A stretch of DNA of 64,000 bases from contig OY986969.1 of assembly GCA_963920575.1 (NCBI GenBank), positions 18,771,288 through 18,835,287 on the forward strand. The letters are read 5' to 3'. Under the pieces are notes generated by a model. That model saw nothing but the letters and a program-made list of their open reading frames with translations, was not told the DNA's origin and did no database searches. The DNA comes from Narthecium ossifragum. Its lineage: Eukaryota; Streptophyta; Magnoliopsida; Dioscoreales; Nartheciaceae. Positions 21,918 to 60,636 of this stretch are shown piece after piece (position 1 is the first letter of the stretch; the number at the start of each line of letters is the position of its first letter). Both the position numbers and the translations under genes were made by a program.

Positions 21918-23468
21918 ATGACCGAGTCCGTTCCTTCAACAAATGACGTCGCGCACCAACGCACCCGCTCCCAAAAGGCGAAGGAAGGGACGATCCAGGT
22001 TCCGCCGCATCGTCCACCTAAGGCGCCTACTGGTCAGAAGGCGCCCGCCATTAACTAAATCACGCCCTGTGTTGTTCCTGCACTACCGAGAACCTAAACC
22101 ACTGGAGCAGATGGTTTCGTGACGTTGGACCATTTTTTCACGACGCAAGCCCAGTTTCGGAAGGAATTTCAAGCACAATTCGAGAACATGACCGGGTTGC
22201 TTCGATCGTTGGCAGATGGAAGCCGACCTCTACCAGATCAAGCCAAGAAGGCACCCACTCTGGCATCAGAGGGAAGGGAGGGCCCAACGGACCTCCATTC
22301 CCAACGACGATCTAGAACGGATAGTGCTACTTGAGGGCCCTCTTTCCCTCGTGGGGATAAAGGAGCCCGTAGCCATGTCGCCTCCTCGTATCGGTCTGAA
22401 TCAAGGAGCTGCCATCACACCGCCATCAATCGAGAAGGCCCCCGGAGACGAGGTCGGTCGCCTCGATGATCTGTCCACACCCGCCTCTCGTATGGTGGCT
22501 CCCGAACGAACCGCCAAACAGTGCACTCGAGATTGAGTAACACCAAAGACCTCCAGGACTACCTCGAAGCCAATAGGGAGCAGCTCGGACTACCCATCCA
22601 AAAGCAGGATGATCTAGACGTCTCAAAGTTCTCTCGTGAAATCGAGGATGCTCCCATCCCGAAGAGGTTCAAAATGACAACGTTGGAAACCTATGACGGC
22701 AAGCAAGACCCGAATGACCATCTGGGGTCATTCGAGACCTTGATGAAGCTACATGAAGCCACCCCAACTGTGAAATGTCATGCTTTCGCAGCCACACTCA
22801 AGGGTCCAGCTAGAGCATGGTTCAACACACTGACGCCCAGATCAATTGAATCTTTTGATTAATTGGCAAGGACCTTCCGGACTCACTTCCTCGGTAGCCA
22901 ACGGAGGAAGAAAACCATCGCCAGCCTCCAACTTATCAAACAGAAGGACCATGAGACCCTGAGAAGCTATCTCAAACGTTTTCAAGCGGAAGCCGTTCAA
23001 GTCGACCAGCTCGACCACGCTCTCGCCAAAACTTTCTTCCGGGATGGTTTGGCCTCAGAGTTCGCATATTGGCACATCTTCCACGGCGGCAACGAAGATA
23101 AGCTCAGCTATACCGAGCTCTTAAATAAGGCTGAGGAGTACGCCAAGACAGAAGAAGCTATCCAAGCCCGGAGAGAGCGTCTCGGCGGGAAGCGTTCGGT
23201 GGCAGAGACAGCCAAGACCTACCAAGCGGCACCACCACAAAAGAAGAAGAAGGAGAATAAGAACAAGCGGTATACCTCTTATACTCCATTGAGTGCTCCC
23301 CTGGATGAAATCTTCATGCAGGTGGTGAAAAAGAAAATGAAGTGGCCATCCAAGGAACCTTCTCAACATCAGAAAGGCCAGCCCGAGGCTACAGGTCGAT
23401 ATTGTCTATATCATCGGCAAGAAGGCCATAGCACCAATGACAGTCGGCACCTAAAGAACTTTCATTGA
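21918..23468 (+). pseudogene. gag of the Tat-like element
   Basis: The ATG at 21918 (context AAGATGACC) opens one frame that can be followed to about 23460. The retrotransposon gag core lies at about 22640-23100: ETYDGKQDPNDHLGSF, then AWFNTLTPRSIESFD, then FRTHFLGSQRRKKTIASL. A zinc-knuckle-like end follows: CLYHRQEGHSTND. Stops at 22056, 22095, 22332, 22467 and 22860 interrupt this frame; each fits a CAA or CGA changed to TAA or TGA. A one-base shift near 23460 then breaks the link to pol. The protein would form the virus-like particle but cannot be made intact. Confidence 0.88.
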
Positions 23469-23469
23469 G

Positions 23470-26400
23470 CAGTTGGTGCGGCAAGGCATCTTGCCCTAGT
23501 TCCAGGCAGGCCCCGTTCCACCAAAGGCCCTCGACCATAATCAGAAGCATGAGACTGCAACTGTGACCAATCAGATCCCCCTCCTGCCCAAAGATGGACC
23601 CGTTCTGGAGATACGGACCATCCTTGGTGGTCCTGCAAGCGGAGGAGACTCATGTTCAACCAGGAAGTCATACTCCCAGGGTGCATCTGGGATTAGTATG
23701 CTCGGTTGTCCAAGGGGATGGGTTCAAGCACGAACCCATCACCTTTACCGAGGAGGATTCTCGGGACATTGTAACCCCTCACGACGACGCTCTCGTGGTG
23801 ACAACGATCATCACCAATGCGAAGGTCCACCGCATTCTGATTGACAACGACAGCTCCGCAGACGTGTTGTACTGGGATGCCTTCAACAAGATGGGTCTCG
23901 GAGCTGGGCAGTTGAAGCCAGTAAACACCCCATTGGTCGGCTTTGCAGGCGAAACTGTTAATCCAGAGGGCTCGATCTCCCTACCAGTAACATTCGGAGA
24001 CGCACCGCACCAAGCTGTGGTGATGACACATTTCCTGGTAGTAAAGTGGCCCTCGACTTACAACGCCATCATCGGACGACCGACGCTAAATAGGTTGCAA
24101 GCAATTACATCAACCTATCACCTCACCATGAAGTTCCCCACCAAGAGTGGAGTAGGAGTCGTCAAAGGAGATCAACACCAGTCCAGGAGTTGCTATCAGA
24201 CAACGTTGAAGGGAAGGGGTGCGATGAACTTAACCGAGCTAGATACTAGAGGAGACCTCTCCCCTGAAGGAGGCACCCCAGTAGAGGAGCTAAGGACGGT
24301 CCAGCTCAAGGAGGAGGATGCAGGAAAGACAACCAAGCTCGGCACGGGCCTTCCACCCATGCTGGCAGCTACATTGGAAGTGTTATTGAAGGAGCATGCT
24401 GACGACTTCGCCTGGTGCTCCTCCGACATGCCAGGTATTTCATCCGAAGTAGCGGTCCACAACCTTGGAGTCGACCCCAACCATAAACCGGTGAAACAAA
24501 AGAAGCAAACCTTCGCGAAAGATCAGAATCAAGCCATCCATGAAGTAACAGAGAAATTGTTGGAAGCTGACTTCATCCAGGAGGTCCACTACCCTGAATG
24601 GTTGGCCAACGTCGTCATGGTGAAAAAGGCCAATGCTAAATGGAGGATGTGTGTAGATTTCACCGACCTCAACAAAGCCTGCCCGAAGGATAGCTACCCA
24701 CTCCCGAAGATTGACCAAATGGTAGAGGCTACTTTAGGACATGATTTGCTCACCTTCATGGACGCATACTCAGGATATAACCATATCCAGATGCACGAAG
24801 CTGATCAAGAGAAGACATCATTTATTACCAACCAGGGCTTGTACTGTTATAAAGTCATGCCCTTTGGGTTGAAGAATGCGGGAGCTACCTACCAAAGGCT
24901 AGTTGACAAAATCTTCAAGGAGCTCATCGGGAGGACCATGGAAGTGTACATGGACGACCTCTTGGTCAAAAGCACCAAGGTGGAAGACCATATACAACAC
25001 CTCCGAGAAGCTTTCCAAGTCCTCCGCAAATACCATATGAAGCTCAATCCGACCAAGTGCGCATTCGGTGTTAGCTCAGGGAAATTCCTAGCGTACATGG
25101 TAACCAATCGAGGCATCGAGGTGAACCCTGACAAGATCAGAGCGATCCAAAAACATGTCGCCCCCAAAAACCAAACGCGAGGTCCAAATCCTCACAGGAG
25201 GTATAGCAGCATTAGCCCGCTTCATATCCAGGCTAGGTGACAAATGCCGCCCTTTCTTCCAAGCTTTGAAGGGGAGTAAAAACCCCGGCCTGGAATGGAC
25301 CCAAGACTGCCAAGAGGCATTCGAAGCCTTGAAAAGCTATCTAGCTATTCCTCCTCTGTTAACCAGGCCTTTGAAAGGTGAAGAACTATACCTCTACTTG
25401 GCAGTCTCACCTACTGCAGTGAGCTCAGTTCTGATATGAGAAGAAGAAGGGAAGCCAAGGTCTATATATTACACAAGCAAGGTATTGCAAGGAGCTGAGG
25501 AGCGATATTCTCTATTGGAAAAGTTTGCACTGGCTCTCGTCCACTCTGCTTGGCGACTCAAACCATACTTCCAAGCCCACACCATCAATGTCCTTACGGA
25601 CCAGCCGGTGAGGCAAGCACTACAGAAGTCAGACATAGCAGGATGGCTCGTCAAATGGTCGTTGATGCTTGGGGAATTTGACATCAAATTTTGTCCCAGG
25701 CCGACAATCAAAGCTCAGTCCATAGCAGACTTTGTAGCAGAATGCACCAGGCTTGAGTCTCGGGTCGCCAAGCTGGCCTGGACTCTATATGTAGATGGCT
25801 CTTCCACAGTTGCTGCTAGTGGCGCAGGACTGGCACTCACAAACCCAGAAGGACAAAGCCACGAGTATGTCCACAAATTCAAGTTCTCGGCCACCAACAA
25901 CGTGGCGGAGTACGAGGCTATGTTAGCGAGGCTGAGACTAGCGGCGCAAATGGGGGGTCAAAGTATTGAAAGCTTATAGTGATTCTCAGTTGGTGGTACA
26001 CCAAATTCAGGGAGATTATGAGGCCAAAGAAGAAGCTATGCAGAAATTTCTCGATAAGATACGACTGGAAATTTTAAAATTTTCAGAGTTCTCTGTCGAG
26101 TATATTCCTAGAGAAGAGAACACCAGAGCTGATGCCTTGTCAAAAATTGCCACTACGGGGAACCCAGACGGTCGCTCTGCGGCCTACATCGAGACACTAC
26201 AAGCTCCTAGTACTGAAGAAAGAGAGGAGTTGACGGTGGAGATAGAAACCAACTGGATGAGTGATATCATCGGCTACCTGAAGGATGGACCCCTAGATGG
26301 CAGATCACTGCGGCAGCTTGCTCGACGAGCTTCTCGTTACACATTGATCCAAGGAGAGCTCTACCGTAGAAGCGCCTCATTCCCATATTTGAAGTGCTTG

Positions 26401-27475
26401 GCTCCAGCCCAAGCATTGTACGTGCTACAAGAGGTGCACGAAGGCATCTGTGGTTTGCATCAAGGAGCTCATTCTCTCGCACAGAAGGTGATGAGGCAAG
26501 GATACTACTGGCCGATGATTAGGACAGATGCAGTCGACCTGGTTAGATGATGCGACACATGCCAAAGGAATGCATCACTCCTCCATCAGTCGGCAATGGA
26601 GCAGGTCCTAATCTTTAGTCCTTGGCCCTTCTATCGATGGGGAATGGATATCTTGGGACCCCTGCCTCAAGCCGCTGCACAAAAGAAGTTCCTTCTAGTT
26701 GTCATTGATTATTTCACTAAGTGGGTGGAGGCGGAAGCCTTGGCCACCATCACAGAGGCCAAGATCAGGAAGTTCACATGGGAGAACATAATATGTCGCT
26801 ACGACATCCCTGGAGTTATTATAACCGACAATGGAAGACAATTCAACAGCTCAAGTTTCAGGGAGTTCTGCGCGGGCCTTTCAATCCGCAATCATTTCAC
26901 CTCAGTTGCACATCCTCAAAGCAACGGTCTCGCAGAATTGGCCAATAGAACTCTGTTGCATGCTCTGAAAACTCGCCTAGAAGGTGTAAAGGGATCATGG
27001 CCAGAGGAGCTACCAGGAATACTTTGGGCACACCGTACTACTCCCAATGGAGCTACTGGGGAAACCCCTTTTTCCTTGGCGTTTGGACATGAGGCAGTGA
27101 TCCCGGTCGAGATTGGAGAACCAAGCCTCAGAACGACCAACAGGCCAGAACCGGAACAGAATGGCGAAGCCTTGAGGATAGACCTTGACCTGCTTGAGGA
27201 GAGGAGAGATGAAGCCCGAATCCGAGTTGCGGCTTATCGACAGAAAGCAGCTCGCTTCTACAACTCCAGAGTCATTTGCCCCGGGAGACCTAGTGCTAAG
27301 GAAGGCAGAATTCGACACTACCCGACCAGGGTCCCACAAGCTTGATCCTACTTGGGCAGGTCCTTACAGAGTAGTTAAGCGGAGGCACATTGAGGCATAT
27401 GAGCTGGAAACCTTAGATGGCGATGTGTTGCCTCACACATGGCACGCCCATAACCTCCGGAAGTATTTGCAATAA
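23470..27475 (+). pseudogene. pol of the Tat-like element: protease, RT, RNase H, second RNase H, integrase
   Basis: Protease region (about 23840-24110) has ILIDNDSSADVLYW, with D in place of the usual G of the active-site motif. RT (about 24560-25100) has the FMDAYSGYNHI and YMDDLLV catalytic blocks. RNase H (about 25290-25740) follows. A second RNase H-like domain (LYVDGSS ... NNVAEYEAM ... AYSDSQLVV ... ADALSK; 25780-26150) precedes integrase, as in the Tat lineage. Integrase has the zinc-binding HEG..GLHQG ... CDTCQ region and a DDE core (MDILGPLP, IITDNGRQF, GLAELANR). Stops at 23497 (TAG), 25437 and 26548 (TGA) fit C-to-T changes. Frame shifts occur near 23670, 25170, 25955 (a G run) and 27275. 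No chromodomain is seen. Confidence 0.92.
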
Positions 27476-27610: not shown

Positions 27611-28260
27611 TAAAGCCTTGGCTCCGCCAAGCACTCGATCTTGACCAATGCTCGAGATCAATTCCCAAAGCCTTGGCTTCACCAAGCACTCGACTTCGAC
27701 CAATGCTCGAAGTCAAATCATAAATAAGCCTTGGCTTCGCCAAGCACTCGATCTCGACCAATGTTCGAGATCAGCTCCCAAAGCCTTGGCTCCGCCAAGC
27801 ACTCGACTCAATCTCGACCAATGCTCGAGATCAGTTCCCAAAGCCTTGGCTTCGCCAAGCACTCGACTTCGACCAATGCTCGAAGTCAAATGATAAATAA
27901 CCCTTGGCTTCGCCAAGCACTCAATCTCGACCAATGCTCGAGATCAGTTTCCAAAAGTCTTGGCTTCGCCAAGCACTCGACTCGATCTCGACCAATGCTC
28001 GAGATCAGTTCCCAAAAGCCTTGGCTTCGCCAAGCACTCGACTTCGACCAATGCTCAAGGTTAAATCATAAATAAGCATTGCCCTCGCCAAGCACTCGAT
28101 CTCGACCAATGCTCGAGATCAGTTAAGCACTCGATCTCGACCAAGCTCAAGATTAGTTCCCAAAGCCTTGGTTTCGACAAGCACTCGATCTTGACCAAGC
28201 TCGAGATCAATTCCTAAAGTCTTGGCCTCGCCAAACAATCAATCTCAGCCGAGCTTAAGA
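27611..28260 (+). repeat. Tandem hairpin repeats in the 3' untranslated region of the Tat-like element
   Basis: About eleven units of roughly 55-65 bp each contain two small inverted repeats: CTTGGCTTCGCCAAG and a pair GATCTCGA ... TCGAGATC around CCAATGC. Some units carry a variant pair (CTTCGA ... TCGAAG) in which both arms changed together. The array lies between integrase and the polypurine tract. Non-coding tandem repeats at this site are known in Tat/Retand elements. Confidence 0.85.
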
Positions 28261-28325
28261 TCATTACAATGAAGAAGAAGAAACAACTATCTTACTCCCA
28301 CCCCAAGCTACTTCTCAGCTCAGGC

Positions 28326-29768: not shown

Positions 29769-32134
29769 TGTCGCGCCCCGACTCGCGTAGGCCCAACCGG
29801 GTCGGGCGACGCGGAGCGGAACCTAACCTACTACGGAAATTTTGGCGAGGTTTCCCTCTATTCGTAGTGGTTACCCTAGCAAATCATAACTATCTTGTAT
29901 TATACAAATATTACAAACCCAAAGACTGAACTGGATATTTATATACAATCCTCAAACAGGGAAATTATACATTTATCACTCCCGTAGGAGACTATCTAAA
30001 ACAAAAAGGGTATAAAACTGTAAGATCGCCACCTCTTAAGCACCGCCAGACGCCGCCACATCACCAAACATCGGCACAGTAGGGGCGACCGAAGAAGAGC
30101 TAACGCCAGCACTTGCAAAACGCAGCCTGAGTAGGAGTGAGCACTAAGCTCAGCAGGGACACTACACTACGACACTCACAAGGGAGGGAACACAACAGTG
30201 TCGCCCTCAAGCAAGACTTGGGTGTGCAGCAAGGGTCCCATAACCCTTCGCCGGTGTCCCTGAAGGGAGGCCTCAGTTATGTTCTTCCAGCCGAACTGGT
30301 CACATACTGGGTTGCCCTCAGCGAGGCAGGAAACCACACTGCCGTCTCACTAGCATGCACCTGACTCTGCTAGGCGGGCAACCACACCGCTGAGTAGGCA
30401 CCTCTTTCACCCAAGAGACAATGAACCGGACACCGGTTGCACCCACAACGTCTGGCTCGAGGCCGACACGAACTCTATAATCATCAAGCAATATGTATTC
30501 AGGTCAAACTAACCCTATCATCGAAAATGACTGAATACTACAAATTGAGTCCTGGACCAAGCTACCCGCAACGGTCCTAGAGCTAGATCCGTGTTACCCG
30601 AAAACCCCGGATCGGCAACGCCCTACACAGATGCAACTAATGCGCAACACAATGCATGTTATGGACATGCGCAGGATAATACAGATAAACATGCAACAGT
30701 ATGTGATGATATATCAAACAAGGTCTGGGCACGACACCCAGCCGGCCCGGGGTGGTGAACATGAAAATAAGGTCTAGGGACTGCTACAGTGGTAACCCAC
30801 CAACTGCCAGCAGTCCACCAAAACACCAGCACCGGGAAGCAGCCCCGCAAACAACAGCTCACATATAACACAGATAAAGCCCTCGGCACACGCCGGCATG
30901 CAAGGCTAAGGAAAGCTGTAGGGCTACCTGCCCACTTATTCTAAACATCCGGGGAGTCATCACTCCCCCGGTTCACCACTGCCCTATTATAGGGCTAACA
31001 TGCTTAAACATATGTACCATGTATTAAGACAGTAAAGAAAACCGTACATGCAAAGCCCCGCGACCAAAACAAGATAAATTTCCTCTCTCTGCCATAGTCG
31101 GATCGATCCCTCTCCCAAGGGAGGATCGATCCCTCTAATGACAGAGAGTGAACCATACCGCGTCGAGTCCGATCGATCCGTCCTCCCAGGACGATCGATC
31201 CGACTCGGGACGGATCGATCCCACTCGCGACGAGGGGATCCCATGCTACCCAAGGCACCGGGATCGATCACCCTCACCCGGGGCCGATCGAACCTGCTTG
31301 GGTTCAGCATGACCAACAAAGATGGATCGATCCATCTCACAGACGGATCGATCGGTTGGGTTCTCCGGTAAACCGACGGCGAGAAATACCGTCGGAAAAC
31401 TCCACCAAATCCCACAAAACCTTGGGATCTAGTAGTACGAAGCATCACGAATCCAAAACCGACGGAAATACTACAATCTAACAAGTATACAACAAGATCT
31501 AAGCATAAGAACATCGACAGACGGAAAACTTCCAAAAACCCGAAATGAATGTAGGTAGGAATCCCTACCGGAGCAAGAGCAGCTTCAATCCCAGCTGCTA
31601 GGCCTTGGATCGTCCACGAACTCTTCGAAATCCAGGAATTCTCAGCCCAAGAATCCGATTTTTCAAAGAGATTCAAGGAGGAAGGTTCTGTTTGTTTTAT
31701 AGGCAAACAAACCGACTTAGCAGGATCGATCCGTCCAAGGAGACCGATCGATCCAGCCAAGGGAACGATCGATCCAGCCAAGGGAACGATCGATTCAACC
31801 AAGAGACCGATCGATCCATCTCCGAGTCTGATCGATTCGTCCCAAGAGACCGATCGATCCGACTCAACAATCCATGTTCCTGTCATTGAGCGATCGATCC
31901 TTTTAGCAAGGAAGGATCGATCCCTCTTTCGCAGGAAGCTGGACTTGGGTTAAAACTTAAACCCAAACCTAGATCTTTCGATCCCGGGTCCCACTAACCA
32001 TTCTAGCCAAACATTACCACAAACATGGTCAGTGTGTGCACACGCGGGTGTGAAACAAGCCGACAAGGCACAATTTACCAAATTCCCCTTGCGGTCCACG
32101 ACGAGCCACAGGAGTAGAGGGACGGGTCCTCACA
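29769..32134 (-). mobile_element. Solo LTR, GACA-ended gypsy family, copy 2 (2366 bp)
   Basis: Ends TGTCGCGCCCCGACTCGC and GACGGGTCCTCACA match copies 1 and 3. A perfect TSD, GTAAC (29764-29768 and 32135-32139), flanks it. It interrupts the GGAAAGTAACT field. It carries about 17 GATCGATC words at 31098-31925. Short open frames inside are compositional. Confidence 0.93.
31098..31925. repeat. GGATCGATCC palindrome clusters inside solo LTR copy 2
   Basis: About 17 GATCGATC words in two blocks (31098-31355 and 31722-31925), mostly extended as GGATCGATCC or CGATCGATCC. In the second block a 21-22 bp near-tandem unit (CGATCGATCCAGCCAAGGGA) is visible. Copy 1 instead has GAGATCGATCTC. Confidence 0.88.
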
Positions 32135-34625: not shown

Positions 34626-35909
34626 GCCCCCGTTTGACAACGGGGGTAACGGGGGTAAGAAATTGGGTTAAGCGGGTTAACCTCCTTAACCCCATTCTTA
34701 TCCCAAAACGCTAAGCATTTGGGGTTAAGAGGGGTTAAACCCAAAAATGAGGTTAAACTTCTCTCTCTCATTTACATTCATCAAATATGTTTTTAATATT
34801 ATTTTGATGATGTCAATATATAAAGAATGATAATAATAATTTTTTTTTTTAGATGACGTGGACCAATCATGGTATAACATGTGGCATGTGGGCAGGGGCG
34901 GATCCACATGTTGAGGTGGGAGGGCAGGCGCCCCCATGAAAAAAAACCTGCCTAATATATATAGAATACTTAATTGCCCCCCCCCCTCCCAAATTAAATT
35001 TGACCCCCTCCTATAATTTACTGATTGCAGAGAGAAAGAAATTTTTGACGATGTTCCTAATGAAGATATTATGCAATACTATCAAAGTATGAAAACTCGG
35101 ATGAAGTAATTGTAATTATTTACTTTTATAGCTATGGTAATGTAATAAGATACCTATTTTGAATTTTTTAATTAATTACTTATATATTTTCTTCTATAGT
35201 AAATTTTTTCTATTAAAGTCGTCCCCCTTCATATAAATACGGGATCCGCCACTGCATGTGGGGACCACCTATATTAATATTTTATTATAATAATATGTTA
35301 TTGATATTATTTAATACACTACACATATGAAGAAAATTTTACGCCCTTAGACTTTTTTATGCGCCTCTAAAAATAGATGCAAATATTTTTATGATGGTAT
35401 ACAAATTAATGTTTATGTGTGTAGTAACATTTTTTGTGCATGTTTGTTTTTCTACGTGCAAATATTTTTGTGAGCCATAAACATTTTTATATTCGATTTT
35501 ATGAGCGTATAAGAACTTTTGCGCACACATAATATTTTTTTTTAATATGTGTCATGTATTTAAATAATATTATTTATATGTTATTATAATAAAATATTAA
35601 TATAAGTGGGTCCACATGTCACATGTCATATCATGATTGGTTTACACTTTACGTACAAACATTTTAATTAACTTAATAATTAATTCAAATATGATAATCT
35701 TAACCCACTAGGTTACCCATTATTATAATATTATATATTTTATACACTTTATAATTTTTACCCTTATATTAAGCTTAACCCACTAACTTACCCCTATTTC
35801 TAAGCCAAATGCCAAAAGTGGGTTAAGTTCACCCCCATTTCTTATCCCCGCTTTTTTACGCCTAACCCCCTTAACCCTATTCCTCTTAACTCCCGAACCA
35901 AACGGGGGC
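34626..35909. mobile_element. PIF/Harbinger-type MITE with TTA target duplication
   Basis: Terminal inverted repeats GCCCCCGTTTG and CAAACGGGGGC are flanked by TTA on both sides (34623-34625 and 35910-35912), the TSD of PIF/Harbinger elements. Subterminal regions on both sides hold GGGGTTAAG / CTTAACCCC words. Total 1284 bp, of which 370 bp is a nested hAT MITE with its TSD. No transposase is encoded. Confidence 0.88.
34893..35254. mobile_element. Nested hAT MITE, 362 bp, carrying a transposase tail
   Basis: Ends CAGGGGCGGATCC and (reverse complement) CAGTGGCGGATCC are flanked by a perfect 8-bp TSD, CATGTGGG (34885-34892 and 35255-35262). A plus-strand frame at about 35030-35108 reads FDDVPNEDIMQYYQSMKTRM and then stops, resembling the C-terminus of TTF/ZMYM-type hAT transposases. 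The MITE is therefore probably an internal-deletion derivative of such an element. Confidence 0.9.
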
Positions 35910-35912
35910 TTA

Positions 35913-36496
35913 GGGTTATAGGAGAAGCACCCTAGGTATTCGACGAGGAAGGCTCAACCGGAGGAGAGAGACGGATGAGGAAGAGGATTACCTCGCAGCT
36001 TCTTCTATGGTTGACCAGCTACCCTTGGGGGATCCACGCATTGGAGATCGTGGCAGCGAATCAAGAGGTGGCGGAGGGAGGCATGTCAGCCAAGGGAATG
36101 CCGAGGACTTGGAGTGGGACGACGAAGGCGTGGACGACAATGGCTTACGGCGGTGACCGGTGAGTGGAGAAAGGAGGCCGACGGTAGGAGAGAAGGTGGA
36201 GTTGGTGGGATTAGGGTTACAGTTACTCCTAGGATTATTCTACTAATAACTCTACTTTATTCATCATAATTTGTCCATAACCTAATACAAACTATAACTG
36301 TCCTTTTACAGAGGCATTGACAAAGTCCTAATCTAACTAGAGAATTATCTTATTTTAATCAACAAGTACTAATACTTTCTTATCAAGACTCAAACATAAC
36401 TCAAACTTCCTAATAAGTAGGACTCATAATAGAAAATAATAAAATAAAATATAAACTGAACTCAAACTAGAAAATCAACTAAGAAAATAAGGAAAA
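35913..36496. other. Unassigned sequence upstream of the carboxylesterase gene
   Basis: A short G-rich part (35940-36220) has a 62-codon open frame without motifs. It is followed by AT-rich sequence. No promoter element could be fixed here. Confidence 0.4.
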
Positions 36497-36622
36497 AGTT
36501 TCGTGTACATGGGATGTACCCATGTTCACGAAACTCCACCGTTGGATTGAACCGGGATGCGTGCCCGGTTCAATCCAACGGTGGAGATTTGGGTACATGC
36601 CTACGTGGCATGTACCCAAATC
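36497..36622. repeat. Three-hairpin module A upstream of CXE18
   Basis: Three consecutive, separate inverted repeats. 36497-36535 is a 39-nt near-perfect palindrome (AGTTTCGTG ... CACGAAACT). 36536-36584 has 21-bp arms CCACCGTTGGATTGAACCGGG around a 7-nt loop. 36586-36622 has perfect 16-bp arms GATTTGGGTACATGCC around a 5-nt loop. A related module lies at 38525-38647. Confidence 0.9.
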
Positions 36623-36920
36623 AGAGCTCAGAAAATAATTATAAAATTAACTAAGAAAATAATCAGTCAGGAATAGAATTCCTTTTGACCAGTTTTGACT
36701 TGGAATCTGGTTCAGTGCCGGGTCCTGCCAAGGGATCGGGATGGATCTGGTTCTACTTAACGTGTGGGACCCGCCCCTTGGCTCGGGGTACCGTATCACA
36801 GACCCCGTGACTGCGACTGTTGTTACAAACCACTCAATATACCTACTACATAAATCGGGCTTGAAGCATCATCTCTCAATATACCTATCTACTTTGGAAT
36901 CGCTTCAGTGCTACCAAACC

Positions 36921-37976
36921 ATGGCGGCCAAGCTCCCGACGGGGAATAGACCTCCGCTCCCGTGGAAGACGCGGCTCGCCGTCGCCGCCGGCTCCGCCCT
37001 CACAGACTTCACACGCCGCCGTGACGGCACCATCAACCGCCGTCTCGTCTCCTTCCTCGACCCCCAGATCAGCCCGTCCACAACCACCAAAGGCGTCCGC
37101 TCCGCGGATCTGGTCGTCGACTCCGCCACCGGCGTCTTCGTCCGCCTCTTCTTCCCGACCCCCGCTGCCAATGACGCGGGCCGCCTACCGGTGGTGGTGT
37201 TCTTCCACGGCGGGGGGTTCGCCTACCTCTCGCCGGCATCGTTTTCGTACGATCATGTGTGCCGCCGCCTCGCGCGGCGGATACCGGCCGTCGTTGTGTC
37301 GGTGGGCTATCGCCTGGCGCCGGAGCACCGCTACCCCACGGCCTACGACGACGGACTCGCCGCGCTCCGCTTCCTCGACTCCTCCATCGCCTCCGTTGCT
37401 CCCGGCGACCTCCGCCGGTGCTTCCTCGCCGGCGACAGCGCCGGCGCTAACATCGCCCACTTCGTGGCCCGCCGATGGGCGGCATTATCCGATTGGAAAG
37501 AATTAAACGTCCTAGGGCTAATAACGATCCAGCCCTACTTCGGGGGGGAGGAGAGGACGGCGGCGGAGCTGAGGCTAAGGACGGCGCCGCTGGTAACCCT
37601 GGACAGGACGGATTGGCTCTGGAAAGCGTTCTTGCCGGAGGGGGAGGACAGGGACCACGAGGCGGCGAACGTGTTCGGGCCGAGGGGGGCGAAGTTGGAC
37701 CTGGGGGAGAGGTTCCCGGCGGCGGTGATGGTGGTGGTGGCGGGGTACGATCCGCTGCAAGATTGGCAGAGGAGGTACTACAAGGGGCTGAGGGAGAGGG
37801 GGAAAGAGGCGAGGTTGGTGGAGTACGAGGACACCATCCATGCCTTCTACCTGTTCCCAGAGCTGCCGCAGTCGTCGGCGCTGATCGGCAAGATCAAAGA
37901 TTTCATCCACGAGATCGCCGGAGAAGAAAGATCATCCGTAGAGAATTCAGAAGCAGCCAAATTAAAGGGTAAGTAA
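36921..37976 (+). CDS. CXE18: Probable carboxylesterase 18 (CXE18-like), intronless
   Basis: A 351-residue alpha/beta-hydrolase of the plant carboxylesterase (HSL/GID1-related) family. The N-terminal LPWKTRLAVAAGSALTDFTR (residues 13-32) is typical of CXE18. Catalytic features are complete: oxyanion-hole HGGGF (96-100), nucleophile Ser173 in GDSAG (171-175), Asp277 in GYDPLQD and His307 in IHAFY. The family hydrolyses ester substrates; the natural substrate is unknown, and the intact catalytic Ser and His argue against a GID1-type gibberellin receptor. The start at 36921 was chosen over an in-frame upstream ATG at 36741 because its context (AAACCATGGCG) is strong and family N-termini begin there. 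Coding GC is very high at third positions. A TATA-like TACATAAATC lies about 70 bp upstream, and AATAAA follows at 38044. It is the only intact protein gene seen in the window. Confidence 0.93.
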   Translation: MAAKLPTGNRPPLPWKTRLAVAAGSALTDFTRRRDGTINRRLVSFLDPQISPSTTTKGVRSADLVVDSATGVFVRLFFPTPAANDAGRLPVVVFFHGGGFAYLSPASFSYDHVCRRLARRIPAVVVSVGYRLAPEHRYPTAYDDGLAALRFLDSSIASVAPGDLRRCFLAGDSAGANIAHFVARRWAALSDWKELNVLGLITIQPYFGGEERTAAELRLRTAPLVTLDRTDWLWKAFLPEGEDRDHEAANVFGPRGAKLDLGERFPAAVMVVVAGYDPLQDWQRRYYKGLRERGKEARLVEYEDTIHAFYLFPELPQSSALIGKIKDFIHEIAGEERSSVENSEAAKLKGK

Positions 37977-38043
37977 TATTAATATTTTAGAGATATTATC
38001 TCAACTACTATTATGACTCGACGATTGCTTTGAATTGATGTTT

Positions 38044-38049
38044 AATAAA
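38044..38049 (+). promoter_or_regulatory. Putative polyadenylation signal of CXE18
   Basis: AATAAA lies 68 bases after the stop codon in AT-rich sequence, a normal distance for a plant near-upstream element. Confidence 0.45.
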
Positions 38050-38142
38050 ATTACTATTCATCAGCCATTGTTGGAATTTTCTAAACCCCTCAATCATTTG
38101 TAACGTACATGACTGAAATGTCACGTACACAAATCTTTTTTT

Positions 38143-38524
38143 AAAATTTTTTATAATAAAAAAAAAACAGAAATAATTTGTGCACATGCTCACGTGACAT
38201 GTGCATTTCACATGTATATGAATCGATAGTTGTGTTACCGATTCATATATATGTCTATCGGTAATAGGCTACCGATAGATATGTATAAGTAGTGGGATAC
38301 CGATAGGTTGTACCGATAGGTTGTACATGCCTATCAGTATTCCACTACCGATAGACATGTATATGAATTGACAACGAATCTATCGGTAGTGAGGTGCCGA
38401 TAGGTTATACATGGTCTATCGATAGACATGTATATGAATCGATAGTTGTGTTACCGATTCAATAATGTGAGATGCACGTCAGCTGGTGTGTGCACCGATC
38501 ACTGCTCTAAACGAAATGGGAAAT
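38143..38524. repeat. ACCGATAG / CTATCGGT inverted-repeat field
   Basis: Downstream of CXE18, ACCGATAG and CTATCGGT words alternate in both orientations with shared phrases such as GACATGTATATGAAT and ATCGATAGTTGTGTTACCGATTCA (the latter at about 38222 and 38436). The left edge (TTTGTGCACATG ... CATGTGCA) resembles a hairpin arm of module B, so the field may be part of one larger foldback unit with it. Confidence 0.7.
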
Positions 38525-38647
38525 GATTTGTGCACATGAATGTGCACCATGTGCACAAATCATAACCGTTGGATTGAATCGGGCACACATCCCGATTCAA
38601 TCCAACGGACAGTGTTGGTGCACATGGCGGACATCCATGTGCACCAA
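38525..38647. repeat. Three-hairpin module B downstream of CXE18
   Basis: The architecture matches module A. The first hairpin is 38525-38561 with arms GATTTGTGCACATG. The second is 38566-38608 with 18-bp arms CCGTTGGATTGAATCGGG around a 7-nt loop. The third is 38615-38647 with arms TTGGTGCACATGG. The central arm matches module A except for C/T at one site, with the paired change in the other arm. The outer arms differ in sequence from module A but each still pairs perfectly. Confidence 0.9.
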
Positions 38648-39343
38648 TCACTACTCAAAGGAATGCTTGGCTCTTGTCGATACACATCTCGCGTCTTCCA
38701 GAGACGAGACAACAAACACGAGTACCAACTAATTCTATAATTATTGTATCCAACTAAAGGCTCATTTAAAATCCTGGAACATCCAAGCTCATTTGCAAAC
38801 ACCTGCCCTGCTAATAATGGCTAGCAGCTCTTCTATAGAACACAGCCCCAACTCCAGATGATATTAAATAGAGATTCCACATGATATCATATAGAGATTC
38901 TAATAATTGGAGTTTTAACAAATTGTAAACGTAATCTATGCAACATTTGTTTACAGATTGTCGAGCAAATCCAAGGAGTATCCATTGTAAGTAAGAACCT
39001 TCCAAGCCAATTTAAGCATTTCATGTTGGTATTTTATTCCGAGTCCACATTCTTCAATAGGCTTGCAAATTCTGATGTCTGGCAGAAGTTTCAAAATACC
39101 CCCAAATATTAATATTTTACTCATCTAACGACAAATATATTTTGTTATAGAAAAACATAGAAAAAACACTAGAGATCCGGAGTCGATCGAGTGTCTATAC
39201 ATGACATGATCACAGGAGAATTGTTTAATTGCGAAATAAACTTTTGAAATTTGGTTATCTCCAACATCAAATATCTCATATCGGTTTAGCAATATACATG
39301 AATAGCAGCACTTGCCCCGTGGAATTTCAAATTGCAAGACCTC
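38648..39343. other. Unassigned intergenic sequence
   Basis: AT-rich with no coding similarity. A small repeat (GATATxATATAGAGATTC) occurs near 38860-38900. Confidence 0.4.
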
Positions 39344-44609: not shown

Positions 44610-46940
44610 TGTGAGGACTTGCCCCTCTACCCCTGTGGTTCGTTGTAGAATGCAAGGGCAATTTGGTAAATTGTGCCTTGTTGGTTTGTTTCACACCCGC
44701 GTGTGCACACACTGACCTTGTTTGTGTTAGTGTTTGATTAGAATGGTTAGGTGGGCCCGGGATCTGAAGATCCGAGCTTGGGCTTGTGTTTTAGCCCAAG
44801 TTTGAGTTTCTGGGCAAAGGAGATTGATCTTTCTTGCTAAGGAGATCGATCTTCCTTGCTAAGGAGATCAATCTTCCTTGAGAAGAAGATCGATCCTTCT
44901 GTGCCAGAAAGTCTTGACGGTGGAGTTTAAGAGGACGGTCGCCGTTAGCTGTCGCTCTCCACTATCAGAGGGAGACAGTACTTTCTCCCCTCTCCTCTCC
45001 CTTTTCCTCTTCTTCTCCTCCTTCCCCGGCTTTTCCCCTTCCTCTTCTTCCTCTTCTCCTTCTCCTTCTGCTTCCTTAATCTTTCTTCTTCCCGCGGCTC
45101 TGCTTCCCCTGTTTTTTCGGCAGCTCGTTGGATCTATGGCGGCGTGAGGAAGATCCGTGGTGCGGTTTGAAGCTGGGTTGGTGACTGGTTAGCAGGGAAT
45201 CAGCCGAGGTTTAGCGTTTCTGGTAGGTTTCTACCTACCTGAGTTAGTTTAGGGGTTTTCTCTTGATCTAGCCGTTAGATCTTGTTGTTCTTTGTGTTGT
45301 TGGATTCCTCTTGCTTAGTGTAATTTCTGTTGCAAGTTTCATAAGCTTTGGTTGAGATTTTAGTAGGATTTAATCATGTTTAATCTCGGATTTTTCGGTT
45401 TCTGCTGTTCTTGAAGAACAACCGGTTTACGGCGAGTGTTCCGATCGGTACGTGCATGTTCTTGGGTTGAGATGAACATAAGAGTTGTAGATCTTTGACT
45501 CTACTCTCAGACCCAACTGATTTCATAATTTGTTGATTTTCCTACGATTTGTTATGATTTTCTTACGGGTGGACTGCGTTGCAGCAAGTAATGGTAAGTT
45601 AGTTTGATTAGCGGTTTGGATTAGTGTTTTTCCGTTAATCGAGCTGGATGTTTTCCTATTTTGGACACGTTGATCCCAACATGTTGATCTACTGGTGTCT
45701 AAGTTGGATCTCGAATCCGACGTCGTTTGGACGTCCGATCGACGGGGTCAATTAGCCTCTAAGTAGAGGATTTTGGTGTTCTTAAATAATATTATATGTC
45801 GGAACATATAATATTATATTTTAACTGTTCATCGGAGTTTTCGGGGTTGTTTCCTGTTGCAGGAGTCCGCGGTTGACTGTTGCGGTACCGTTGTAATGCC
45901 GGGACCCGCTGCGGATTGGCTGGCAGCGGTTGATAGTACCGCTGCAGCGATCCGGTTGGACTTGTATGATATCCTTAACATATTGTTGCATGCTTACCTC
46001 TTACTTGTATTTGTTCATAGCATGCATTCTTTGTTGTGCATTAGTTGCATGGTTAGAGCATGGGTGATATGTGGGTCACCGTCCCGAGGCTCGAAGCTCA
46101 GATTTAGCCCTAGGATCGGGGTTGGGTAGTTTGGACCCGGTTCGAATTGTGGTGTCCAGTCAAATTTGATGATAGGCCTAGATAACTGGTACACCTGTTG
46201 CTTGGTGATTGTAGGGTCGTGTCGGCCTCGAGTAGGATGTTGAGGTGTAGCCGGTGTCCCACTGTGTTGACTCTTGAGTAGAGGAGTTGCCTGCTCAGCG
46301 GTGACATTGCCTGCCTGCAGTGCCTTTCCCTGCTTGTGAGCCAGCAGTGTTGTTCCTGCTACTAAGTGTGACCTGACATGTGACCAGCTCGGCTGGAAGA
46401 CCATGATCGTGGGCCTCAGGGACATGCAGTGGGGTTATGGGACCCCTGTACACACCCAGGTCTTACTTGAGGGCGACACTGTTGCGTTTCCCTCTTCCTT
46501 CTGTGTGCCGTAGTGTAGAACCCTACTGAGCTTTATGCTCACTCCTACTCGGGCTGTGTTTTACAGGTGCAGGCGTTAGCTCCTCTTCGGTGGCCCCTAC
46601 CGGGCAGTTAGTCAGCGGTGCGACGGCGCCAGGCGGAGTCTGAGAGGTGGTGATCATTTACGGCTTTATACCCTATGTTAGTTAGCCTCCTACGGGAGTG
46701 TTTAAATGTTGTATTTGGATCTTCCCCTCTCCGAGGATATGTATATTAAATTCACTTGGGTTTTGTAATCTATGATTCGAGGCTTCTTTAATTATGTCTT
46801 TTTAAATTGAGGGTGTTTGTGATGATTGTTAGGGAGACCAATAGGTTAGAGGGAACCCTCGCCAACATTTTTCCACGGTTTGTTAGGTTTCGGTTCGCGT
46901 CGCCCGGCTCGGCTGGGCTTTCGCGGGTCGGGGCGCGACA
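44610..46940 (+). mobile_element. Solo LTR, GACA-ended gypsy family, copy 3 (2331 bp)
   Basis: Opposite orientation to copies 1 and 2: starts TGTGAGGACTTGCCCC and ends GGTCGGGGCGCGACA, flanked by a perfect TSD, CCAGG (44605-44609 and 46941-46945). It has only a small GATCGATC cluster (44820-44895, AGATCGATCTTCCTTG-type near-tandem units). No PBS follows the 3' end, so it is solo. Confidence 0.93.
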
Positions 46941-56016: not shown

Positions 56017-56330
56017 GGAAAATTTTTTTAAATAATATTATTTTAAAAAAATATTATTAAAATATGCCTCTGAAGAAAATATTGATGGATGTATGCCTTG
56101 TTTGGCCACGTCAGCGCCACGCTGGCGTGGCCTTTCATTTTTTTAATCCTGCCATAAAGACGTAACTTCAAGTTACGTCTTTATTAATTAGACGTAATTT
56201 GAAGTTACGTCTTTGACCGTTCCCTCCCCACTCGAAGCCAAGGGCGGGCGGATAAGAGTGGTCACTATTAAGACGTAACTTGGAGTTACGTCTATATTAA
56301 TAAAGACGTAACTCAAAGTTACGTCTTCCA
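56017..56330 (+). repeat. Left TIR of the MULE with four 21-bp palindromes
   Basis: Pairs with about 60637-60952. It contains GACGTAACTTCAAGTTACGT-type 21-mers at 56159-56179, 56191-56211, 56272-56292 and 56305-56325. The first is a perfect palindrome with 10-bp arms around one base. ACGT cores make these candidate protein-binding sites. Confidence 0.92.
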
Positions 56331-56918
56331 TCGTCATCAACCCCGTGGCCGCAGGCCCTTCTCCTTTCCCCCAGCCGGTCTCTCCTCCTTCCCCACCCGG
56401 GCTCTCCTCCTTCTCCTCTTTCCGGCGCTCTCCGCCAGTCTCCGGCGCATCTGCTCGGCGCTCCGCGCACGGCCCCGCGGCCCCGCGGCCCGCGGCTCCC
56501 CTCCCCCCACATTTCCGTCCATCCACTCCTTCAAGAGGAGTTAAATCTTGAAATTTGCCGGCGATTTTTCGGCGATCTTCCGGCCAAATCCTTCAAGATC
56601 CTTTGGTCATTCTCCATCTTACTTTCCAGTAAGTTTTTATCTTGAAATTTTAGTTCTTGTTGTTGTGTGAGATTTAGGATTTATATAGTCAAATTAGGGT
56701 TTTTTTTATAGTATGCCTATTTTTTATTCGAAAATTCATTTTTTAATCATGCTGATATGATGATTTGGATAGTGGCATTGTTGATAAATTTCATAAATTT
56801 TTAGTATTAATTCAATTAGATTAGATGAAACATGTTTTCCATAGAAATTTTTATTATTAACATGTAATTTCTTTCTAATCGACTCATAATTGTCATCATA
56901 TTTGTGTTATTTATAGTG

Positions 56919-59490
56919 ATGGATAATGGCATTGTTCCACTATTGTGTCGGATGGACAGAAATGTGGAATTAAAGGGTAATGCGGGTGATATTGAGTACA
57001 TAGGTGGCCGAATCAAACCTAGTAGGATACGGAAAAATGCAAGTTATGCCGATTTAAAGGCTTTAATGTTTGATTTAACTGGATACAATCCAAACTATTT
57101 CGACATTCGCATAACTTGTAGATATCCAATAGGAGAAAGCATGTATTGCGGTGTCGAAATAAAGAATGTTAGTGATACTAGTGGCATTCTTAGCATCTAT
57201 CTAGTCATTCCAAGTATACAATTGTTCTTGGTGAAAATTGGTGTCGAAGTCAACAATAACCCTCCAAATAATACGGCATTTGGTGAATTTACACGCCTAC
57301 TACAACGAGAAGATGATTCAACAGATAACGTCTCTCTTGGGTCTTATGGCGCTCCCATCCTCGGACACCAGGCATCGCAGTAAGTAATTTATTGTCAAAC
57401 ATGTAATTTTACATCTTGGTTTGCCCTTGTTCATGAGTTCGCTTGTGTATGAACATGCAGGCCTTACCGGTAGGAGGATACATGGTTGACTCCTGAATAC
57501 ACGCAAACTACTCCGGGTACAAACATGGGACACACACATTATGCTTTTGATGTTGAGCCGTCGAGTTTGCTCGGAGGCCACCAATATGATGATGACAATG
57601 TCAGTAGCGGCCATGGAGATGCTTCTATGCCTTCAACATCTCGAAGCCCCTTGATAGATGTTGATGTCGAGGATCATGATGACGATTGGATCGAGAATAC
57701 TGCACTTAGCAACGAGCCAACACGTCATGATGAAGGTATTGATGATCCAATGCTGCTTACTCCAACACAGTACGAGGAGGAGTTACCAGATGAATTCCCA
57801 AATGATGAGTGGGTCGACCGAATGACAATGAATAATACCATACTCGGGGTATTTGAAGACCCGACCCCGTTCAATGGTGAATTCTATAAAAAGCAAATAT
57901 TCGAGACCAAGGCATCACTTATGCATGCTCTTCAATAGTACGAGCTTCGGAGGTTTGCAGAACATTGCACTGTCAAGTCCGGGCCGAAGGTGTTGACCGT
58001 CAAGTGCTGTAATCCTAATTGTTCCTGGCATTTGCATGCGTCTACTTATAAGGAAACATCTTACTTTCAGGTACAGAGCACTCATTGCATTTAGTGTAGA
58101 GCACTCATTGCGTTTAGTGTCAAGTGTCGTAATCCTAAAGGAAACATCTTACTTTCAGGTGAAGAGTTATGGTGGTTCACATACATGTCGGGCGGGTTTG
58201 TTGAATACCAACCACCGTCACTGCACTGCTCAATTCATATGTGGTATCATACTTGGTGCGATAAGGACAAACACCGCTATGACCCCCAAAGATATTGTGC
58301 AAAGGATCAAAGATGACTACCACGTCAACATCAGCTATGCAAAAGCATATCATGCACGTATACTAGCTATGAAGATTATATATGGTGATTGGAAAGAATC
58401 ATATAATATCCTGCCTTGGTATATGCAAGCAATGGTGGCAGATAATCCTGGTACTGTAGTGAAGCTTCAAACGGAAACTGTGTGCACCGGTGTTGATATA
58501 TTTGAGCGCGTCTTCTGGTCGTTTCATCCTACTATCGAGGCTTTCAAACACTGTCGATCCATAATATCTATCGATGGAACACACCTATATGGAAAGTATC
58601 TTGGCACTTTATTAGTCGCGACGGCAGTGGATGGCAACGATCATTTGATATCAATAGCATATGCCATGGTTGAGTCTGAAAATTCCAGCAGTTGGTCATG
58701 GTTCCTTGCTCTACTTAGAGTATATGTGGTCAGTGGAAGAAGAGGTATAGCTATAATTTCAGACCGACACAGAGCAATCAAAGAGGCAGTAAGGACAGAG
58801 TTCCCCCCGCCGTTAGGCTTCCAGCGATTCTGTATGAGGCACTTTACAGACAACTTCAGAAGCAAGTTCAAGGATGATAATTTGTATAGCTTATTTTGGG
58901 CTGCAGCAAAGAAGATCCACAAGGAGGCATTTCATAAGATCATGGATGGAATTAAAAAAGTTAAGCCAGAAGCTTATCAGTGGCTCATTACTGCAGAGCC
59001 ACCAGAAACTTGGGCGTTGTCTCATGATGATAACAAACGGTTTGGCTCAATAACCACCAATTGGTCTGAAAGTTTGAATAATGGTTTGAAAGGTGTACGA
59101 GGTATGCCTATTAAAGCATTAGTGGCCAAGACTTTTGAAAGGATGAACAACCTCTTCAAGCGCCGTCGTCGTGAGGGGCAAGCAATGACTGGTGAGCTGA
59201 CACCAGTAGTTGAAGATGTACTACACAAGCATTGCATACTAGCCCAATCATGTCATGTGCAATCATTTGACGGTGGTGAGTACACGGTGAAAGAACGACA
59301 TGAGGTTACATTTACTGTCAAGTTATTTGGACAGGAAGGGACATGCAGTTGTGGACAATTTCAGATGATGCTTTATCCATGTCCGCACGTTCTAGCCGTA
59401 TGCGGTGACATATCGATCAGGGCTTCGGCGTACGATTTCGTTTCTTCGTTTTATAGATTATATGGTATCCATACGCACCGCAGCGTCTAG
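56919..59490 (+). pseudogene. MURA-type transposase of the MULE
   Basis: The ATG at 56919 starts an N-terminal PB1-like region. Predicted introns are 57380-57460 and 58071-58158 (GT-AG, frames restored). The MuDR N-terminal domain spans the second intron: FETKASLMHALQ, stop, YELRRFAEHC ... KSYGGSHTC. The MULE transposase domain has catalytic Asp at 58573 (SIDGTHLYGKY), Asp at 58762 (ISDRHRAI) and Glu at 59068 (NWSESLNNGLK). A SWIM zinc finger follows (CSCGQFQMMLYPCPH, about 59345-59390). TAG stops at 57471-57473 and 57936-57938 fall where CAG would fit. All catalytic residues are kept, so decay is recent. The reading shifts frame near 59460 into the plant mobile domain. Confidence 0.92.
58071..58158 (+). 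other. MURA intron containing copies of the upstream exon
   Basis: An 88-bp GT-AG intron, phase 0. Its last 21 bases (58138-58158) are identical to the last 21 bases of the preceding exon (58050-58070), and 58119-58138 repeats exon sequence 57999-58018 with two changes. Between them GCACTCATTGCRTTTAGTGT is duplicated inside the intron. Confidence 0.85.
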
Positions 59491-60282
59491 CACAATTACT
59501 GGCCCTTTGCACTGCGGGGTTTGCTGTCTGGAGGAGTCATGTGCCGCTCATATGCTTTGATGTTGTGGAGATGCACCATGTACTACGGGTGATGCGGCAG
59601 TTTGGCCTGCGACAAGAGATACCGCCCTCGGTGACAGAGAGACTATCGCGTGTAAGCCTTCGGGGCAATGCTACTGCTGACTGGGTCAGTATGCATCACC
59701 AGTATATCACCCAATGGGAGGAACGACACCAGAGGATCATTGACGGTGTAGTGGACGAGGGTGAGGATCCTGCAGCATATTTACAGTGGTATTGGGGGAT
59801 CACCAGCCGGTATGTCAGTAGGCCTAGATTGGAGGACATAATGACCTTTCAGCCGAACATACACCTGCTACGGAAGCTGGTAAATATAATTTGTTCGTTA
59901 GTAATTAATTCTTATATTATGTTAATCTAACTAAACTTTGTTAACTCGTCATGAACAGTATGACACAGCCGAGGAGAATTACATGCTGTGCCGCGACCGT
60001 TCTGGAGAGGAGCTCGCCGATCGTTTGACATCGATATTCTACTCTATGATGGAGGATTTGCGAATTTGCGGCGGAGATCCTGTCAGTTCACAACAGTCGC
60101 AACAGACTACTGGTCAGACTCCTTTCTATGACATACCGATATCTCAAGATATACCATCATCATATCCAGCCATGGGCACGACAGAGGAGGATTCGGAGGG
60201 ACATGATGAACATGATGTCGGTGTCGGTGCTACGATGGGGAGAGGGAGGTTGGACCGTCGAGGAAGAAAAGTATGGAAGTGA
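59463..60282 (+). pseudogene. Plant mobile domain (PMD) segment of the MULE
   Basis: The frame from 59463 reads WYPYAPQRLAQLLALC, then VWRSHVPLICFDVVEMHHVL, then WEERHQRI, matching the C-terminal part of plant mobile domains (MAIN/MAIL-like and transposon-borne PMD). A 79-bp intron is predicted at 59880-59958 (phase 0), after which YDTAEENYMLCRDRSGEELA continues to a TGA at 60280-60282. The frame overlaps the MURA end in a different frame, with a stop just upstream. Either one base was lost in a former MURA-PMD fusion, or an unseen splice joins them. An acidic and basic tail (GRGRLDRRGRKVWK) ends it. Confidence 0.75.
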
Positions 60283-60636
60283 AGAAAAGAACTTGGAGAT
60301 TGTGATTGTCTTCTATTGTAAATTTGGTATTTTTTGGTTAATGGTTTGTGACCATTTAGAGATGTTAATTATGTTTGATGTAAACGATTTTGATTTATAT
60401 AAAGACTGTGTATGGTTGTGAATGGGGTGGGTGAGTGTTTAGATGTGAATGGGGTGGGTGGGTGTTTAGATGTGAATGGGGTGGGTTGGTGTTTAGATGT
60501 GAATGTGAGATGTGATTTGTAAATATTGTATTTTTGTGATTGTATGGTTGTACAAAGCGAAAATAAAAACTCAAGTGAGATTGCTGTGAGCACCAACTAA
60601 GACGTAACTTCAAATGAACCCAGGGAAAAGGTTCCA
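60283..60636. other. MULE 3' non-coding region with a short tandem repeat
   Basis: Contains four units of GTGTTTAGATGTGAATGGGG type with a period of about 30 bp at 60420-60505, followed by a partial GACGTAACTT motif at 60601. No gene. Confidence 0.8.

What the first reader, a model, noticed from the sequence alone, without database searches (positions are those of the whole stretch)
36497..38647. Paired three-hairpin modules on both sides of the carboxylesterase gene
36497-36622 and 38525-38647 each consist of three consecutive independent hairpins. The central arm is shared (CCGTTGGATTGAAYCGGG), with a C/T difference matched by a paired change in the other arm. The outer arms differ in sequence between modules, yet each still pairs along 13-16 bp. 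Ordinary MITEs keep one terminal inverted repeat, not three separate stems. The paired changes suggest either selection on structure or an amplification mechanism that copies arms (inference). The module could be a new foldback element type or a structured transcript element. Its position 300 bp upstream and 550 bp downstream of CXE18 could affect that gene's chromatin or RNA.
Basis: partly seen in the sequence, partly recalled or inferred. Interest (0 to 1): 0.75.

Follow-up and report, generated by a model that had tools for sequence, protein, structure and literature searches.

The report
Three-hairpin miniature transposons beside an esterase gene
The two hairpin modules are two separate insertions of a tiny, numerous plant transposon that lacks its own transposase gene and is built of three hairpins; the hairpin arms changed together while the transposon was spreading and decay after it lands, so the modules are not a matched pair made for the gene between them.

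Summary
Each is a complete 139-bp non-autonomous DNA transposon: M1 36491-36629 and M2 38518-38656. The 379-Mb plant genome holds 298 exact matches to the shared arm, against 0 for the reversed control. With ends set by homology alone, 40 of 75 central-hairpin copies had an exact 9-bp target-site duplication, and 0 of 75 had one of 10-14 bp. M1 is one of these (AGAAAATAA); M2 matches 6-7 of 9. M1 and M2 belong to different subfamilies, with nearest relatives elsewhere at 95.7% and 95.5%. Two copies are identical but have different duplications, which points to recent mobility.

Paired changes occur family-wide: 12 of 42 stem pairs changed on both sides. Stem changes shared by 3 or more copies are mostly paired (92 of 114 cells); private ones are mostly unpaired (37 of 42). 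So structure is kept in the spreading lineage and decays after insertion. Central loops also occur inverted. Arm-to-arm template switching explains both signs best.

Closest known: foldback Mutator-like families (MuTAnT, FARE, Tm1). No autonomous partner was found, so the superfamily is inferred. No effect on CXE18 was shown.

The parts
36482..36490 (+). left 9-bp target-site duplication AGAAAATAA of M1
   Evidence: identical to 36630-36638; 126 of 20000 shuffled flank pairs give any 9/9 match in the allowed boundary range
36491..36629 (+). M1, complete 139-bp three-hairpin MITE (A end GGAAAAAG at left, B end at right; C-type central arm, loop ATGCGTG)
   Evidence: ends set by family homology coincide with the TSD; CM R1 153 bits, though M1 is one of its training copies; nearest relative L044 95.7%
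36497..36535 (+). M1 A hairpin
36534..36586 (+). M1 central hairpin
36586..36622 (+). M1 B hairpin
36630..36638 (+). right target-site duplication of M1
36921..37976 (+). carboxylesterase 18-like gene between the two insertions (351 aa from the second ATG of the ORF; start codon inferred)
   Evidence: Abhydrolase_3 E 2.3e-56 for the longer ORF 36741-37976; 62% to Phoenix dactylifera probable carboxylesterase 18
38122..38142 (-). solo A-end fragment of a relative
   Evidence: 3 mismatches of 21 to an A-end variant
38168..38507 (+). E3, larger relative with similar A and B ends and a different interior of CGATAG hairpins; no duplication found
   Evidence: A end 3/21 and B end 4/21 mismatches; flanks scanned; fold of 38165-38510 z -11.7
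38518..38656 (+). M2, complete 139-bp three-hairpin MITE (T-type central arm, loop CACACAT), same orientation as M1 by its termini
   Evidence: ends by homology; CM R1 141 bits, a training copy; nearest relative L043 95.5%; flanks AAACGAAAT/AAAGGAATG match 6 of 9, or 7 of 9 after a 1-bp shift
38523..38563 (+). M2 A hairpin
38566..38608 (+). M2 central hairpin
38615..38647 (+). M2 B hairpin

Best explanation
M1 and M2 are two independent insertions of a high-copy, roughly 139-bp non-autonomous cut-and-paste DNA transposon (a foldback MITE, most likely mobilised by a Mutator-like transposase) that makes 9-bp target-site duplications. Its body is three hairpins: an A-end hairpin starting about 7 bp from the terminus, a central hairpin, and a B-end hairpin. 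Shown: copy number, ends, 9-bp duplications, subfamilies, family-wide paired changes, and loss of pairing in private changes. Inferred: recent movement, a MULE transposase acting on the ends, and arms of the spreading source elements kept alike mainly by polymerase template switching between arms (quasipalindrome correction), which also flips loops. Selection on the hairpins for transposition may add to this. The confidence below is for the identity as a foldback, MULE-type MITE; template switching as the main cause of the paired changes I hold at about 0.6, and it does not exclude the first rival.
For: 298 exact arm matches against 0 for the reversed control, and 123 exact A ends against 0. 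Exact 9-bp duplication at homology-set ends in 40 of 75 central-hairpin copies, 1 of 75 at 8 bp and 0 of 75 at 10-14 bp. Independent ascertainment by the A end: 10 of 20 places have the left-flank 9-mer repeated exactly next to a recognisable B end. L031 and L051 are 100% identical with different duplications. M1 and M2 differ in subfamily. Both-side changes at 12 of 42 stem pairs, 50 cells against a shuffled mean of 16.0 (0 of 500), slid controls 1-12. Shared stem changes 92 paired/22 unpaired, private 5/37. G.T 22 and A.C 21 mismatches, so no sign of RNA-level wobble tolerance. Loop ATGCGTG in 14 C-type hairpins and its exact reverse complement CACGCAT in L053 (C-type arms) and L006 (T-type arms); L028 holds CATGTGTG, the reverse complement of the usual CACACAT plus one base. 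Arm homogenisation and spacer inversion together are the described outcome of template switching (PMC8604942, passages). A 4.9-kb MULE in the same window has a 9-bp duplication and hairpin-bearing TIRs.
Against: No autonomous element with these ends was found; the genome search for MULE domains did not complete. M2's flanks match only 6-7 of 9. 26 of 75 copies lack a duplication with at most one mismatch at, or within 1 bp of, the homology-set ends. Loop inversions rest on two or three events. Shared-change cells are inherited, so their number overstates independent events; 22 of 114 of them are unpaired. One of the five measures, the number of further pair types, hardly exceeds its shuffles (30 against 27.2; 38 of 500 reach it).
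Confidence: 0.8

Rival explanations
1. Same MITE, but the paired changes come from selection: the transposase needs cruciform or hairpin DNA at the ends, so source elements that lose pairing stop moving until a second mutation restores it.
For: Shared changes are paired and private ones are not. A copy with a shortened yet still paired A hairpin exists (L003).
Against: Does not by itself predict the loop inversions. Copies with one A-hairpin arm deleted still carry exact 9-bp duplications (L036, L071), though the deletion may postdate insertion.
Confidence: 0.25
2. A structured RNA element, with the hairpins acting in the CXE18 transcript or as small-RNA precursors.
For: Very stable predicted folds; near a gene on both sides.
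Against: No Rfam match in the window at gathering thresholds. Private changes mostly break pairs (37 of 42) and G.T and A.C mismatches are equally frequent. Hundreds of exact arm matches in the genome and target-site duplications.
Confidence: 0.05
3. The two modules are the terminal repeats of one larger element that carries CXE18 (a Pack-MULE-like capture).
For: M1 matches the reverse complement of M2 at 81% over 102 columns.
Against: That match follows from each module being a near-palindrome; the direct alignment is 81% too, against 83% inverted. Termini place both in the same orientation. M1 has its own 9/9 duplication. Outside the pair the best flank match was 6 of 7 bases. Different subfamilies.
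Confidence: 0.02

Closest known systems
MuTAnT of Medicago truncatula (Mutator-like; PMC4486113, passages read)
   Same: Small non-autonomous elements, 90% of them 200-300 bp; 9-nt duplications; ends built of modules that fold back, four similar segments
   Different: MuTAnT was first seen as a foldback of two 144-bp TIRs and targets TA microsatellites; here three separate hairpins lie in 139 bp, A and B termini differ, and the targets are AT-rich (80% AT in 46 duplications) but mostly not TA arrays. No sequence comparison was made
Tm1 Mutator/Foldback family of root-knot nematodes (PMC3169594, passages read)
   Same: 9-bp duplications, composite ends with internally repeated motifs, asymmetric terminal 7-bp motifs, MITE-like members
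   Different: Tm1 ends are variable-length TIRs with a repeated ~14-bp motif; an animal host; a member encoding a putative transposase is described. No sequence comparison was made
FARE foldback transposons of Arabidopsis (known here only as cited in PMC4486113)
   Same: Foldback ends, now placed with MULEs
   Different: Long palindromic repeats at both ends; not compared in sequence
In-window MULE 56017-60952
   Same: 9-bp duplication CATTGGAAA, first bases GGAAA(A), TIRs holding at least two hairpins each
   Different: 4.9 kb with a transposase ORF, 313-bp TIRs at 96.5%; by eye only the first five or six bases agree with the MITE's A end, and the blastn of 35800-39000 against the window showed no match to it

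Membership tests
MITE (non-autonomous DNA transposon) | short, no room for a transposase gene, many dispersed copies | tested here: met
   139 bp modal length (19 of 75 copies); 298 exact arm matches, of which the 100 listed lie on C1-C5; listed A ends on C1-C10
MITE (non-autonomous DNA transposon) | target-site duplication of fixed length | tested here: met
   9 bp exact in 40 of 75; 0 of 75 at 10-14 bp
MITE (non-autonomous DNA transposon) | terminal inverted repeats | tested here: inconclusive
   imperfect: the A and B arms share 12 of 17 (M1) and 15 of 17 (M2) bases from position 8 inward; the outermost 7 bases share 1 of 7 (M1) and 4 of 7 (M2), read from the ends printed
Mutator-like (MULE) superfamily | 8-11 bp, typically 9-bp, duplication | tested here: met
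   '9 nt ... typical for MULEs' read in PMC4486113; the 8-11 range is recalled
Mutator-like (MULE) superfamily | autonomous relative with a MULE transposase and the same ends | not tested
   the genome search for PF10551 did not complete (14 tries); the in-window MULE does not share the ends
Foldback transposons | ends composed of inverted modules able to fold back | tested here: met
Structured RNA family | pairing conserved in each copy, wobble pairs tolerated | tested here: not met
   private changes 37 of 42 unpaired; G.T 22 against A.C 21; no Rfam match at gathering thresholds

The most novel reading that the evidence does not exclude
A MITE group whose inverted repeats have become chains of local hairpins: each terminal repeat carries its own mirror copy, arms are rewritten in concert and loops flipped by template switching while the element spreads, and the transposase recognises the extruded hairpins rather than a fixed sequence. 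This would let the end sequences drift into many subfamilies (TT, TC, CT and CC at one pair of neighbouring arm positions, each matched in the other arm) without loss of mobility.
Probability: 0.15. Interest if true: 0.7.

Novelty: new variant of a known kind. Interest (0 to 1): 0.42.

Why it matters
The copies form a natural experiment: paired changes shared between copies arose in the spreading lineage, unpaired private ones after landing. That separates maintenance of structure in the source from selection at the insertion site, a distinction easily missed when compensatory changes in repeats are read as evidence of RNA function. If template switching is confirmed, such elements would be a dense genomic record of quasipalindrome correction in a plant.

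Tried and rejected
Pack-MULE-like capture of CXE18: rejected on orientation, the separate duplication of M1, and subfamily. Two nearby copies on contig C3 (L046/L047) looked like ends of one larger element; they lie in an inverted duplication of at least 1.78 kb at 99.9%, natural or an assembly artefact, and L047 was dropped from then on. In the first count both are still in, L042 is entered twice and L060 three times. A 20-bp duplication around M1 was considered; I read it as a 9-bp duplication inside a short AT-rich repeat that was there before (from the sequence). Rfam: nothing at gathering thresholds. Arm pattern in viral contigs: one match with a single arm (L001), taken as chance and not pursued. 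The neutral simulation of M1 against M2 took its 53 pairs from an M1 fold and counts 8 unpaired pairs in M2, mainly where the shorter M2 stems end; it still gave P 6e-5 for 5 paired changes in the inverted alignment (8 in the direct one). Nine paper searches listed nothing that I recognised as this family or as template-switch homogenisation in MITEs; I judged from the listings (at most 20 papers each) and from passages of three papers, and subscription journals are largely missing from the library.

A random 400-kb sample for an unbiased copy count, and the search for an autonomous element, could not be done. One search chose ends with the help of the duplication, so its higher figures (46 of 76 exact, 57 of 76 with at most one mismatch) are biased upward; the unbiased figures are those. 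One search looked for the left 9-mer anywhere beyond 40 bp downstream, a looser test. Copies were found by exact arm or exact A-end matches, which favours young copies and makes the central stem look too conserved. The A stem alone, not used to find copies in the first set, shows the same split (shared 37 paired/9 not; two copies 5/5; private 2/11; 40 of 49 copies used), although copies were admitted there by a 13-base A-end motif that covers six of its left-arm positions.

Full report
What was checked. The two modules exist at the stated places and each is three consecutive hairpins. None of 30 dinucleotide shuffles of the window gave a hairpin scoring 12 or more; both modules fold far better than shuffled sequence, z -11.8 to -16.7, as RNA and as DNA. 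The organism is a plant: the gene between the modules is 62% identical to date-palm probable carboxylesterase 18, the best of the listed hits, and the host genome held here is 379.4 Mb in 150 contigs.

They are copies of a mobile element. The shared arm occurs 298 times exactly in the genome (144 forward, 154 reverse) against none for the reversed control. That search listed its first 100 places. I used the 30 loci given with it and fetched the 49 remaining listed sites. After leaving out 8 loci that overlap another of the set, and L001, I found 75 central hairpins, M1 and M2 included. With ends set only by similarity to two 21-base end motifs, 40 of 75 are flanked by an exact 9-bp direct repeat; at 8 bp it is 1 of 75, at 10 to 14 bp 0 of 75. 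The modal length is 139 bp (19 of 75). M1 has the exact repeat AGAAAATAA and spans 36491-36629; such a match arises in 126 of 20000 shuffled flank pairs. M2 spans 38518-38656, and its flanks match 6 of 9, or 7 of 9 after a 1-bp shift; it is adjacent to a relative (38168-38507) with similar ends and a different interior. A second route to the family, exact A ends (123 in the genome, control 0), was sampled at 20 places: the 19 in C1-C3 with no exact central-arm match nearby, and one on C9 chosen because two A ends face each other. There 10 of 20 have the left-flank 9-mer repeated exactly next to a recognisable B end; L098 has one too, next to a 54-bp element, in low-complexity sequence, and is not counted.

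They are not a pair. Among 27 complete copies compared, M1 is closest to L044 (95.7%) and M2 to L043 (95.5%), both elsewhere in the genome; the third-best match of M2 is already down at 80.6%, and M1 is not among its best three. By their termini both lie in the same orientation. The inverted match between them (81%) follows from each being nearly palindromic: the full elements align at 83% inverted and 81% direct. M1 ends 291 bp before the likely start codon of the gene (36921), and M2 starts 541 bp after its stop. L031 and L051 are identical over 139 bp but sit in different duplications (TTTTATAAT and CCGGTGTAT), which points to recent movement.

Paired changes. In 29 complete copies (28 distinct), 12 of 42 stem pairs show changes on both sides, in all three hairpins (5, 3 and 4 pairs); 50 cells carry such changes against a shuffled mean of 16.0 (0 of 500 reach it) and 1 to 12 in slid controls. 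One measure, the number of further pair types, is hardly above its shuffles (30 against 27.2, 38 of 500). The important split is by age of the change: stem changes carried by three or more copies are paired in 92 of 114 cells, those of two copies in 7 of 18, those private to one copy in 5 of 42. Cells are not independent events, so the Fisher value printed there should not be read as a probability. The A stem alone, in 40 of 49 copies, gives shared 37 paired and 9 unpaired, private 2 and 11. The simplest reading is that the structure was kept while the element was spreading and is not kept at each landing site. G.T and A.C mismatches are equally frequent (22 and 21), which gives no support to selection on an RNA of either strand.

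Mechanism of the paired changes. Polymerase template switching between arms of an inverted repeat makes arms identical and can invert the spacer (PMC8604942, passages read). Both signs are here. The C-type central hairpin has the loop ATGCGTG in 14 cases, and the exact reverse complement CACGCAT occurs in L053 and, on T-type arms, in L006; L028 holds CATGTGTG, the reverse complement of CACACAT plus one base, where 35 T-type hairpins have CACACAT. M1 and M2 themselves differ by such a flip (ATGCGTG against CACACAT, the reverse complement with one base changed). L015 and L099 have a loop in which the stem has been prolonged by a mirrored piece. Selection by the transposase for paired ends is a real rival or partner: it explains the shared/private split but not the flips.

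How the three-hairpin form relates to ordinary MITEs. Five of the 20 places found by the A end (L084, L086, L088, L090, L091) carry a different interior; at least L084, L086 and L090 close into one long foldback like a long-TIR MITE, all three with exact 9-bp duplications. L098 looks like the A end mirrored on itself in 54 bp, with a low-complexity 9-bp repeat; L095 shows the same mirror without an adjacent repeat. L060 holds three modules within one pair of duplications, 350 bp. So the group is modular: shared ends, exchangeable hairpins.

Place among known elements. A 9-bp duplication, composite ends that fold back and short non-autonomous copies are the marks of foldback Mutator-like families such as MuTAnT (PMC4486113, passages) and Tm1 (PMC3169594, passages). 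The window itself holds a 4.9-kb Mutator-like element (56017-60952) with MULE and SWIM domains, a CATTGGAAA duplication on both sides, and terminal repeats with at least two hairpins each; by eye it shares only the first five or six bases with the MITE. The autonomous partner was not found because the genome search for the transposase domain did not complete. The superfamily is therefore an inference; that these are transposon copies rests on the duplications.

What it does to the gene. Nothing measured here shows an effect on CXE18.

Noticed in passing
window 56017-60952: Mutator-like element with transposase ORF 58036-59490, 313-bp TIRs 96.5% alike, perfect 9-bp duplication CATTGGAAA; each TIR holds two hairpins built of AGACGTAACTTNNAGTTACGTCT-type palindromes, whose arms also differ in a paired way between hairpins
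   Followed up: partly
window 13283-13443: Hairpins built of the palindrome GAGATCGATCTC in a row; a related motif recurs as a 22-bp tandem array at 44817-44895
   Followed up: no
window 31678-31823 (-): A weak match of the family model R1, E 0.0005, in a region of 20-21-bp tandem repeats; probably unrelated
   Followed up: no
L046/L047, contig C3 near 5.516-5.520 Mb: An inverted duplication of at least 1.78 kb, 99.9% identical, with about 200 bp between the arms; natural palindrome or assembly artefact
   Followed up: no
L024:1440-1760: Two three-hairpin elements back to back that share the target (C)AACTGAAA, as if the second entered the duplication of the first; M2 and its neighbour at 38168-38507 look similar
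   Followed up: no
window 3953-6749 and 22863-27345: hAT-like reading frames (DUF659, dimerisation domain), and a retrotransposon-like region (reverse transcriptase domain in ORF 23594-25240) followed by a tandem array at 27612-28263
   Followed up: no
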